Below are positions 1 through 2,107 of a stretch of 36,074 nucleotides of DNA, piece by piece (the first letter of the stretch is position 1; each line of letters starts with the position of its first letter). A program made the position numbers and the translations under genes. The notes below the pieces were generated by a model, which did not search any database, was not told where the DNA came from, and was given only the letters and a program-made list of their open reading frames with translations. Source of the DNA: an uncultured Oscillospiraceae bacterium (lineage in GTDB: Bacteria; Bacillota; Clostridia; Oscillospirales; Oscillospiraceae). The stretch lies in contig CAKUJN010000011.1 in NCBI GenBank assembly GCA_934661735.1, positions 1-36,074 of the forward strand, read 5' to 3'.

Positions 1-2107
1 CCGGCATCGACGTGATCGACTGCGCGACCTCCTGCTTCTCCAACGGCACGTCGCAGCCCGCAACCGAGACCATGTTCGTGCCGTCGGAGATGCCGTTTGC
101 AACAGCCCAGTCACGGCCCGCGGCGTACCACGGCGTACCGGAGGTGTTCACGCCCTCCATACGCGCGAGGATGGTCAGCACCATGCCGCGCGTCGTGCTG
201 GCGCTCGGGCTGAACTTCGTCGCGGAGGTGCCGTTCATCAGGCCGCTTCCGTAGACATAGCGCACGTCATCATAGAACCAGTCGCCCGACTTCACATCCG
301 TGAACGGAAGCTCGTCATCCAGCGCCGGAAGCAGTCCTGCCCACCACGGCAGAACAGGCTCTGGCGCGGGCTGTTCATCTCCTATCCACTTTGCGTAGAG
401 CGTGAGATTTTCCGTCACGTCCTCGTCAAAATTGTATTTCTCGGTACATTTCCTGTCCGTGTACCAGCCGCCGAAGGTGCAGTTGTCCTTTGTCGGGTCC
501 TCGGGTCTGGCGGCAGGAACATTGGCGCGCACCTGTCTCGGCACGTCGCTGCCACCCTGCGTGTCAAACGTGACAACCCACGCGTCGGTCAGACCATCGT
601 CGATCACCTCGTCGGTGAAACTGCCGCCGCTGATGATTCCGTAGCTTTCATTGGTGACTTTGCCGCTGAATTCGCCGCCGGTAATTCTACTGGGATACCC
701 TGCCCCCCATTCATGATTCCTATTGATTACCTCACCGGTAAATCTGCCGCCCGCAATGGTTCCGCCGTAGTTTTCAACGTTTCCGCTGAAGGTCGTGCCC
801 GGCATGTTTTCAGGCATTGTCTGGATCGTCCCCTCGATGAATACGCTGCCCTTCACTGTCCCTCCTTCGGCATTCATCTGGGTCACCTGGATATACAGGT
901 CGTCTTCGATGATACCGTCGGTCATCGTAAAAACATTTCCAGATGTGAGACATGCGCCGCCGCCTTTTTGAGCTGTACAGCCGCTGATCCTGCCGCCGTT
1001 CATGGTAAACGTTCCTGTGTCGTTATTAAACACGCCGCCGCCACACTCGCCAGCCTTGCAGTTGTTGATTTTTGCGTCACCGCTCATCGTGAAAGCAGCG
1101 TCACTATACATAAACACGCCGCCCCCGTACACTCCGGATGTGCAGTGGTCGATGCTGCCGCCGGACATGTTGAACGTACCATCGCCGATATACACACCGC
1201 CGCCAAGCGGCGTTATGCCAATGTCTCTCGCTTGTGCCTCACATCCGGCAATTCTGCCGCCGGTCATGGTAAACTCGGTGGATTCTCCCGTTCCGTCTCC
1301 AACACCAACCGCTACACCGCCGCCCCAGGACGTTGACCTGCCCGTTATCAAACAGCCGATAATATTGCCGCCGGTGATTGCAAGCTTTGTGCCTTTTTCC
1401 GTATAGATGCCGCCGCCATATGCCGCAAAATCATCCACCACAGTTCCTGTGCCGCCCGCGATCACGCCGCCATAGACGGTTTCCGTTTTCTCTGCCGTTT
1501 CGTTTTCGCCCAGCAGTTTCCACAGGTCATTGGTCGTGTCAAACGTGTGCGGATTGCTGCTGTTTTTGTCCGTAATCGTCAGCGCGCCGCCCTTTACCAC
1601 CTTGATGACGCTGCCCTGTTCGCCCGTAAATTTCAGCACATGGCCGTTCAGGTCAAGCGTGACTGTTTTGTCAATAACCAGTGTGCGGTTAATCTCAATG
1701 TCGTTGGAAAGCTGAACATAGTTGTGAACATCGTCGTCAACATAGTTGTTCACATAGACGGCCGCTTCCAGTTCTCCCTGAGATTTCACCTCGCAGGGAT
1801 TCTCCTCTGTGTAGGAAGGCTTCTTTACCAGATGCAGTGTGCTTTCTTTCTGGATGCCGTAATCCTGTAATGTCTTATCATCTTCCAGCTGCTTTCCGTC
1901 AAAAGTAAGCCGCTGTTGTGCAGGCGGAATCCCCTCTTTTTCCTGAATCTTTGTTTTAACCGTCAGAATCGGGTCTGTCGGCTCCACCTCCAGCGTGATC
2001 GTCTTTCCGGTCAGCGTTTTGACAAAAATCTGCATGGCGCACGCGCTGACGCACAGCGCCAGCATCACGCCCAGAACCATCAAAAGCCGCAGAATTCTCT
2101 TTTTCAT
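1..2107 (-). CDS. Secreted SLH surface protein with N-terminal ubiquitin domain (3' end outside window)
   Basis: Open from ATG at 2107 to the window edge (702 codons, no stop seen). Residues 1-24 are a signal peptide with basic start, hydrophobic core and ending VSACA. Residues 25-94 match eukaryotic ubiquitin almost perfectly, beginning MQIFVKTLTGKTITLEVEP; by my count 57 of 70 positions equal human ubiquitin. All seven ubiquitin lysines and R42 are kept, but I44 is Thr and the LRLRGG tail is replaced by KKPSY, so it cannot be conjugated as normal ubiquitin. Next come beta-helix-like repeats with GGG and GG-x-I motifs (about 150-480), a Listeria-Bacteroides/InlB-type repeat ending LTLYAKW, then SLH motifs (WYAAGRDWAVANGISDG). 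The SLH part implies non-covalent attachment to cell-wall polymer. Weak RBS AGGGGCGAC. The role of the ubiquitin fold is unknown; host mimicry is only a guess. Confidence 0.9.
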   Translation of the reverse strand, partial: MKKRILRLLMVLGVMLALCVSACAMQIFVKTLTGKTITLEVEPTDPILTVKTKIQEKEGIPPAQQRLTFDGKQLEDDKTLQDYGIQKESTLHLVKKPSYTEENPCEVKSQGELEAAVYVNNYVDDDVHNYVQLSNDIEINRTLVIDKTVTLDLNGHVLKFTGEQGSVIKVVKGGALTITDKNSSNPHTFDTTNDLWKLLGENETAEKTETVYGGVIAGGTGTVVDDFAAYGGGIYTEKGTKLAITGGNIIGCLITGRSTSWGGGVAVGVGDGTGESTEFTMTGGRIAGCEAQARDIGITPLGGGVYIGDGTFNMSGGSIDHCTSGVYGGGVFMYSDAAFTMSGDAKINNCKAGECGGGVFNNDTGTFTMNGGRISGCTAQKGGGACLTSGNVFTMTDGIIEDDLYIQVTQMNAEGGTVKGSVFIEGTIQTMPENMPGTTFSGNVENYGGTIAGGRFTGEVINRNHEWGAGYPSRITGGEFSGKVTNESYGIISGGSFTDEVIDDGLTDAWVVTFDTQGGSDVPRQVRANVPAARPEDPTKDNCTFGGWYTDRKCTEKYNFDEDVTENLTLYAKWIGDEQPAPEPVLPWWAGLLPALDDELPFTDVKSGDWFYDDVRYVYGSGLMNGTSATKFSPSASTTRGMVLTILARMEGVNTSGTPWYAAGRDWAVANGISDGTNMVSVAGCDVPLEKQEVAQSITSMP

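What the first reader, a model, noticed from the sequence alone, without database searches (positions are those of the whole stretch)
1826..2035. Near-perfect eukaryotic ubiquitin domain at the N-terminus of a bacterial S-layer-type surface protein
Seen: directly after a signal peptide the protein reads MQIFVKTLTGKTITLEVEP and continues as ubiquitin for 70 residues; I count 57 identities to human ubiquitin. It is followed by beta-helix repeats, an InlB-type repeat and SLH motifs. Known: genuine ubiquitin is eukaryotic; a free secreted ubiquitin homologue is known in Bacteroides fragilis. Inference: a ubiquitin gene was captured from a host or protist and fused to a wall-anchored adhesin, placing a ubiquitin fold on the cell surface. 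It could bind host ubiquitin readers, act as decoy or antigen mimic, or simply be a stable cap. Such conservation suggests recent capture or selection.
Basis: partly seen in the sequence, partly recalled or inferred. Interest (0 to 1): 0.93.

Follow-up and report, generated by a model that had tools for sequence, protein, structure and literature searches.

The report
Exported ubiquitin tip on bacterial stalk
This bacterial gene encodes a protein that begins with a predicted export signal, follows at once with a ubiquitin domain (57 of 70 residues identical to the human protein) and continues with a predicted stalk and cell-wall-binding repeats, so it likely shows ubiquitin on the cell surface as a binding tip; it matters because ubiquitin is usually thought of as a eukaryotic protein, yet dozens of other bacteria encode similar ubiquitins that are predicted to be exported.

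Summary
In detail: on the minus strand, window 2107-1 encodes a predicted signal peptide, then ubiquitin (1826-2035, 57/70 identities), a beta-helix-like stalk, a List_Bact repeat and SLH repeats. The 777-aa relative P0003 confirms the architecture; the window stops inside the SLH region. The evidence speaks against a chimera and against recent host capture: 24 of 120 listed protein clusters combine ubiquitin and SLH domains, another species has a homologous fusion (L001), and the flanking genes are clostridial. More broadly, bacteria carry many exported-looking ubiquitins: 68 of the best 80 GTDB loci, and 15 of 15 ORFs from Pfam genome samples (5 of them among the same loci), have a signal-peptide-like stretch before ubiquitin. 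These are fused to unrelated surface proteins, to bare tails, or to nothing. The core (1-70) is conserved while fused parts diverge; the conjugation tail is mostly lost (GG in 11 of 83). The window copy lacks LRLRGG and has I44T, so it should not be conjugated and likely avoids canonical readers. Best reading: a non-conjugating surface ligand tip, partner unknown. Relative to BfUbb (free secreted ubiquitin) it is a new variant. Mechanism confidence is modest.

The parts
2036..2107 (-). Predicted signal peptide (24 aa, MKKRILRLLMVLGVMLALCVSACA); ATG at 2107, preceded by purine-rich GGAACAGGGG. An in-frame ATG lies 11 codons upstream (2140) and is the start used in P0003
   Evidence: helix in the AF2 model; no SignalP was available
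1826..2035 (-). Ubiquitin domain, residues 1-70; all seven lysines kept; I44T, A46D; no LRLRGG tail
   Evidence: AF2 pLDDT about 90; best-fitting Foldseek hits are ubiquitin crystal structures at 0.4-0.6 A over 70-71 residues
1724..1825 (-). Linker with a short helix; similar in the ubiquitin-SLH relatives
596..1723 (-). Right-handed beta-helix-like stalk (GGG repeat rungs)
   Evidence: strand pattern and pLDDT; relative L001 aligns at 40% over 397 aa including part of this stretch
389..574 (-). PF09479 Listeria-Bacteroides (InlB-type) repeat
71..307 (-). SLH repeats (first complete, second partial in the window; Pfam finds two stretches and the AF2 model three helix pairs in the full-length relative P0003)
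1..70 (-). Contig end; encoded residues diverge from P0003, probably an assembly end

Best explanation
The gene encodes a ubiquitin domain that follows a predicted signal peptide and precedes a predicted beta-helix stalk and SLH repeats, so the mature protein likely begins with ubiquitin Met1, is likely held in the cell wall by its SLH end, and would present ubiquitin at the outer tip as a binding ligand that is predicted not to be conjugated. It is one member of a large set of exported-looking bacterial ubiquitins. In that set ubiquitin is the constant part and the fused part changes: SLH proteins, autotransporter barrels, dockerin and LPXTG-like proteins, bare IPTL/PEP-like tails, or nothing at all. 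The inferred mechanism is that ubiquitin's surface docks onto a partner outside the producing cell. In the set as a whole the partner is most simply a eukaryotic protein that also recognises ubiquitin (protist or animal host), because that would hold the sequence near the eukaryotic one. In the SLH lineage of the window the Ile44 face has changed while residues around the first hairpin, K11 and E34 have stayed, so docking would use that side and specificity has probably shifted. Shown: sequence, architecture, distribution, conservation of the core, loss of the tail. Inferred: export, anchoring, tip position. Untested: the partner and the effect.
For: Architecture. A signal-peptide-like N-terminus of 17-60 residues before ubiquitin in 68 of the best 80 GTDB loci (script); Ala is the residue before Met1 in 63 of the 74 such loci overall. 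In three read by eye (L028, L051, L055) some residues seem to lie between cleavage site and ubiquitin. The same by eye in 15 of 15 over-cut-off ORFs from Pfam searches of 290, 400 and 299 genomes, centre genomes with hits left out; 5 of these 15 are loci again (L001, L013, L025, L032, L073), and overlap between the samples was not excluded. Controls: 0 of 14 well-known genomes match. Ubiquitin alone or with only a short tail in 12 intact loci, two of which pass the IPTL-CTERM cut-off (L017, L086), so ubiquitin itself is the payload there. Selection: 53 pairs with homologous downstream parts; nonsynonymous change is lower in ubiquitin in 52 and tied in one (L089/L090); synonymous difference in ubiquitin is 0.6 or more in 44 of 53. 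Core 1-70 kept, tail decayed: G76 in 22%, GG in 11 of 83 distinct sequences. Fold. T7, T9, G10, K11, K33 and E34 are invariant in the 28-row alignment of the lineage and relatives.
Against: No partner, no expression data and no proof of export. In the ubiquitin-SLH lineage the C-terminal half of ubiquitin is about as variable as the stalk: position 44 is Thr in 9 and position 70 is Thr in 12 of 17 distinct sequences, which weakens the idea of a partner shared with eukaryotic ubiquitin readers. Invariant hairpin residues may be kept for folding alone. The main search required one of two exact ubiquitin peptides, which favours conserved copies and inflates conservation of residues 1-16; the Pfam samples did find diverged ones (L107, L117, L118, L120). 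Twelve of the 80 loci have no recognised signal peptide, five of them a group of actinobacterial fusions. The pairs are not independent. Carriers include, by title, free-living bacteria and two archaeal bins, and MAG titles can be mis-binned.
Confidence: 0.38

Rival explanations
1. Structural cap: ubiquitin is a very stable, fast-folding N-terminal module that protects or nucleates the fused surface protein, with no binding partner.
For: At or near the mature N-terminus in the exported-looking copies; fused to many unrelated parts; buried residues are kept more than exposed ones (0.96 vs 0.84 over positions 17-70, buried list recalled).
Against: Exported-looking ubiquitins with no cargo or with only a short tail exist (12 intact loci). 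Exposed positions 17-70 are still kept at 0.84 and all seven lysines in 59 of 83, more than folding should need.
Confidence: 0.28
2. Antibacterial ligand: the displayed ubiquitin inhibits competing bacteria, as secreted BfUbb of Bacteroides fragilis does.
For: BfUbb has the same signal-peptide/Met1 junction, also lacks the terminal glycine, and the mature 76-aa protein inhibits some B. fragilis strains (PMC5705921, abstract and Discussion read). Free exported-looking ubiquitins occur here too (5 of the 12).
Against: Most copies scanned are fused to further parts, so action would need contact or release. No neighbour family lies near more than 8 of the 75 loci compared, the window included, although BfUbb appears not to need an immunity protein. 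A bacterial target would not obviously hold the sequence near the eukaryotic one in many phyla.
Confidence: 0.18
3. Host mimicry as proposed by the first reader: a recently captured ubiquitin acts as decoy for host ubiquitin readers or as antigen mimic.
For: 81% identity to human ubiquitin over 70 residues; all lysines and the F4 and TEK patches are intact (patch definitions recalled).
Against: Signs of age. I44T, A46D and loss of L71-G76 change the usual reader surface and remove conjugation.
Confidence: 0.1
4. Assembly chimera with eukaryotic DNA.
For: The last 70 bases of the contig do disagree with P0003; ubiquitin third-position GC is 0.56 against 0.67 in the rest of the gene.
Against: P0003 stands for 8 sequences, 23 further listed clusters have ubiquitin plus SLH, a homologous fusion occurs in L001, and the complete plasmid of the isolate Ruminococcus albus 7 carries a different signal-peptide-ubiquitin gene.
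Confidence: 0.01

Closest known systems
BfUbb, secreted ubiquitin of Bacteroides fragilis (PMC3352274 passages; PMC5705921 abstract and Discussion)
   Same: Eukaryotic-like ubiquitin with a bacterial signal peptide cleaved exactly at ubiquitin Met1; no terminal glycine
   Different: BfUbb is free and soluble (mature 76 aa); here ubiquitin is the first domain of a long stalk protein with SLH repeats, and exported-looking relatives carry 14 phylum labels
SLH-anchored beta-helix/InlB-repeat surface proteins of Clostridia
   Same: Signal peptide, beta-helix-like repeats, PF09479, SLH repeats; a second SLH protein lies at 3586-6810 in the window; matches to P0003, mostly to its SLH end, occur in 44 of 60 genomes of the class
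   Different: Most of the listed matches do not cover the ubiquitin part
'Ubiquitin family protein' WP_013483628.1 on plasmid pRUMAL01 of Ruminococcus albus 7
   Same: Signal peptide directly followed by ubiquitin
   Different: 246 aa, not SLH-anchored by annotation; named only by its domain, with ubiquitination GO terms marked IEA
Bacterial ubiquitin-like conjugation systems (Bub/BIL operons; recalled, no call)
   Same: Ubiquitin-fold protein in bacteria
   Different: Those are cytoplasmic and operonic with E1/E2/JAB-like enzymes; none turned up among the window ORFs scanned and the diglycine tail is missing

Membership tests
Ubiquitin (PF00240) | Profile match over the curated cut-off and ubiquitin fold | tested here: met
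   99.4 bits against 25.4; best-fitting structure hits are ubiquitins at 0.4-0.6 A over 70-71 residues
Ubiquitin (PF00240) | C-terminal LRLRGG needed for conjugation | tested here: not met
   LHLV-KKPSYTEE
Ubiquitin (PF00240) | Intact Ile44 hydrophobic patch | tested here: not met
   I44T, A46D; L8, H68, V70 kept (patch membership recalled)
BfUbb-type secreted ubiquitin | Signal peptide ending directly before ubiquitin Met1 | tested here: met
   By sequence and AF2 helix; cleavage itself not shown and no SignalP run
BfUbb-type secreted ubiquitin | Free-standing mature protein of about 76 aa | tested here: not met
   P0003 has 777 aa
BfUbb-type secreted ubiquitin | Antibacterial activity | not testable with these tools
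   Needs purified protein
SLH cell-wall-anchored surface protein | Signal peptide plus SLH repeats | tested here: met
   PF00395 in the window and in P0003; three helix pairs in the P0003 model
Bacterial Bub/BIL conjugation systems | Diglycine tail | tested here: not met
   Tail absent
Bacterial Bub/BIL conjugation systems | Neighbouring E1/E2/JAB enzymes | tested here: inconclusive
   None among 20 window ORFs scanned with NCBIfam and 10 with Pfam (mostly the same); not every ORF was scanned, and the gene lies at the contig end, so one flank is unseen

The most novel reading that the evidence does not exclude
Ubiquitin is a widespread bacterial cell-surface module: acquired from eukaryotes long ago, it has spread between bacterial phyla as a signal-peptide-ubiquitin head that caps whatever surface anchor a lineage owns, and selection keeps its surface because it docks onto ubiquitin-recognising proteins of the eukaryotes (protists, animal hosts) that the bacteria meet, with the SLH lineage of the window having retuned its docking face.
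Probability: 0.27. Interest if true: 0.92.

Novelty: new variant of a known kind. Interest (0 to 1): 0.76.

Why it matters
The 2017 paper read here calls B. fragilis one of a few bacteria with a eukaryotic-like ubiquitin (PMC5705921, Discussion). The scans show many more exported-looking ubiquitins in bacteria and in two archaeal bins, with the ubiquitin core kept and the conjugation tail mostly lost. That points to an extracellular, non-covalent role of ubiquitin outside eukaryotes, makes it testable in cultured carriers such as Ruminococcus albus 7, Dyella, Leeia and Ohessyouella, and bears on anti-ubiquitin immunity and on annotations that assign ubiquitination GO terms to bacterial proteins.

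Tried and rejected
Assembly chimera: rejected. Recent host capture: rejected. Toxin-immunity or operon partner: an all-against-all comparison of 1681 six-frame ORF candidates flanking 74 loci and the window found no family near more than 8 loci; by my reading of the sequences the larger groups are surface proteins, response regulators, ABC transporters and LysR types; one unrecognised neighbour is shared by four loci (L034, L047, L064, L066) and was not followed. Phage carriage: no match in 50,697 phage records; 10 IMG/VR contigs match, 6 of them with signal-peptide-like starts; full P0001 found no relative there. Invertible promoter upstream: only a hairpin 2170-2196 and a terminator-like repeat 2193-2212. 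Placing the window's species: no whole genome is held; the nearest ComEC among 295 genomes is only about 40% identical, so the genus stays unknown. Tree: 72 columns do not resolve the number of transfers. Literature: 10 searches in a library of open-licence papers only, lists capped; alone had 878 papers holding two of the terms and listed 15. I saw listings for all, and opened four papers. No title or abstract start that I saw described ubiquitin fused to bacterial surface proteins.

Full report
Observation. The minus-strand ORF starting at 2107 reads signal peptide, ubiquitin, linker, GGG-repeat beta-helix, InlB-type repeat, SLH, and runs off the window. Ubiquitin occupies 1826-2035; 57 of 70 residues equal human ubiquitin, and the Pfam score is 99.4 bits against a cut-off of 25.4. 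The full-length relative P0003 has 777 aa and stands for 8 sequences at 90% identity. Residues read from window 1-70 differ from P0003, so the contig end is unsafe.

Host genome. The flanks carry sporulation sigma factors E and K, SpoIIGA-like, Rex, HolA, RarA-like and ComEC-like genes: a clostridial chromosome by inference. No whole genome is held; the best ComEC among 295 genomes of one order is about 40% identical. The genus is unknown.

Distribution. A scan of GTDB species genomes with two exact ubiquitin peptides found 298 stretches encoding a relative; the best 80 were kept. A hydrophobicity script, not SignalP, finds a signal-peptide-like N-terminus of 17-60 residues before ubiquitin in 68 of these 80 and in 6 of 10 IMG/VR loci; Ala precedes Met1 in 63 of the 74. 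In L028, L051 and L055 some residues seem to lie between the cleavage site and ubiquitin (by eye). The 68 carry 14 named phylum labels, one of them archaeal with two loci; one locus has none. Labels come from record titles and may reflect mis-binning. Cultured strains among them include Leeia oryzae, two Dyella, Ohessyouella, Conexibacter and Pseudomonas kuykendallii; the complete plasmid of Ruminococcus albus 7 carries another. Pfam searches over whole genomes gave 4 of 290 and 2 of 299 genomes over the cut-off, the centre genomes left out, and 7 of 400; three further genomes had matches below the cut-off that were not counted; 0 of 14 controls matched. Overlap between the samples was not excluded. 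All 15 ORFs over the cut-off have, by eye, a signal-peptide-like stretch directly before ubiquitin; five of them are the loci L001, L013, L025, L032 and L073 again. So the rate in these samples is 0.7 to 1.8 per cent.

Architectures. Of 68 proteins scanned (the window and 67 of the 90 loci), 12 have autotransporter barrels, 8 List_Bact repeats, 6 Glug, 3 SLH, 2 dockerin and 2 IPTL-CTERM matches; NCBIfam adds LPXTG-family and T9SS-type matches. Twelve intact loci have ubiquitin with no tail (5) or only a short one (7); three of the latter, L086-L088, have identical ubiquitins, and L017 and L086 pass the IPTL-CTERM cut-off. Ubiquitin is the constant part.

Ubiquitin-SLH lineage. With P0003 residues 60-175 as query, 318 proteins matched; of the 120 listed, most look like polyubiquitins by their domain lists, and 24 (P0003 included) carry both PF00240 and PF00395. 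L001, from another species, aligns with P0003 at 40% over 397 residues from the signal peptide into the beta-helix, and has List_Bact and SLH domains as well. In a 20-member subfamily with near-identical signal peptides and SLH ends, the C-terminal half of ubiquitin occurs in block-like variants. I count 12 distinct ubiquitins from the printed alignment; the script's 13 includes one row shifted by a residue. Median identity there is 0.80 for the C-terminal half against 0.91 for the N-terminal half and 0.70-0.92 along most of the stalk windows. Among 17 distinct ubiquitins of 27 proteins (three of them without a listed SLH domain), position 44 is Thr in 9 and position 70 is Thr in 12. The window's I44T is thus part of a lineage trend, not a sequencing slip. 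This goes against a partner that reads the classical Ile44 face.

Selection and age. Of 77 proteins compared, 53 pairs have recognisably homologous downstream parts. In 52 the nonsynonymous difference in ubiquitin is lower than downstream, in one (L089/L090) equal; in 51 the downstream identity is 24-64%, and ubiquitin identity is 80-99% in all; the synonymous difference in ubiquitin is 0.6 or more in 44. The pairs are not independent. For window against L001 the values are ubiquitin 80%, downstream 33% over 536 residues. Third-position GC of ubiquitin follows that of the fused part (r = 0.92, 61 loci); in the window it is 0.56 against 0.67. The tree of 126 rows and 72 columns puts the window on a long branch nearest to clostridial ubiquitins (highest identity 82%, L012), inside no strongly supported set; one bacterial group is not rejected (p-AU 0.103) but is not shown either.

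What is kept. Over 83 distinct bacterial ubiquitins the core stays and the tail decays: L73 51%, R74 42%, G75 37%, G76 22%; GG in 11 and all seven lysines in 59. One of the 83 is the truncated L018, and conservation of residues 1-16 is inflated by the search peptides. The window keeps the F4 and TEK patches and all lysines, but has I44T, A46D, R54K, S57Q, N60G and no tail (patch definitions recalled). In the 28-row alignment of the lineage and relatives, T7, T9, G10, K11, K33 and E34 are among the invariant positions.

Structure. AlphaFold2 gives ubiquitin pLDDT near 90, a long beta-helix, and in the second model helix pairs of three SLH repeats at lower confidence. The best-fitting Foldseek hits are ubiquitin crystal structures at 0.4-0.6 A over 70-71 residues.

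Mechanism. Shown: sequence, architecture, spread, conservation, tail loss. Inferred: export, wall anchoring, tip position. Proposed: ubiquitin is a non-conjugating ligand for a partner outside the cell. Tail-only and free forms argue against a mere cap; the lack of a neighbour family near more than 8 loci gives no support to a toxin-immunity pair, though BfUbb appears to need none. A eukaryotic partner would explain why the sequence stays close to eukaryotic ubiquitin, but the SLH lineage departs on the classical face, so for this protein a changed specificity is more likely.

Known context. BfUbb is the nearest studied case: signal peptide cleaved at Met1, no terminal glycine, antibacterial within the species (PMC5705921: abstract and Discussion read; PMC3352274: passages read). 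PMC4378268 and PMC1779556 were read as passages and describe other things. Ten searches of the open-licence library listed nothing that I saw on ubiquitin fused to bacterial surface anchors. Databases do name single members by their domain.

Noticed in passing
L009, L063, L069, L075, L077: Five loci with actinobacterial titles encode ubiquitin starting at or near Met1 without a recognised signal peptide, fused to a conserved ~155-aa domain ending in FTG (ubiquitin 89%, rest 55% median identity); in L009 and L069 a second, more divergent ubiquitin-fusion ORF lies in tandem upstream, near amidohydrolase and acyltransferase genes. Possibly a cytoplasmic bacterial ubiquitin family.
   Followed up: partly
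L118 (G871): The genome that holds the same ubiquitin ORF as L001 has a second, strongly diverged signal-peptide-ubiquitin protein (27 identities in 61 aligned).
   Followed up: no
L104/L110 (G313): Two different signal-peptide-ubiquitin ORFs (188 and 196 aa) lie side by side in one genome.
   Followed up: no
L037, L057, L074, L107, L115, L117: A distinct variant (GKHITLEVEPTDRIEDVK...DGNTLQDYSIQKDSTLHL type) occurs in records titled Alphaproteobacteria and Clostridia with different downstream parts, suggesting transfer between bacteria.
   Followed up: partly
L034, L047, L064, L066: Four ubiquitin loci share one neighbouring protein family that I did not recognise.
   Followed up: no
window 3586-6810 (-): A second SLH protein with beta-helix-like repeats and no ubiquitin.
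   Followed up: no
window 2400-3518 (-): Protein of five DUF4379 treble-clef zinc-finger stretches.
   Followed up: no
window 29864-32446: MvaI/BcnI-type restriction endonuclease with two N6/N4 methylases in a stretch where GC falls from about 0.58 to 0.45.
   Followed up: no
window 27808-28604 (+): TPP riboswitch followed by a thiamine transporter.
   Followed up: no
window 1-70: Contig end disagrees with the full-length relative P0003.
   Followed up: partly
L018: Ubiquitin ORF with an in-frame stop: an apparent decayed copy.
   Followed up: no
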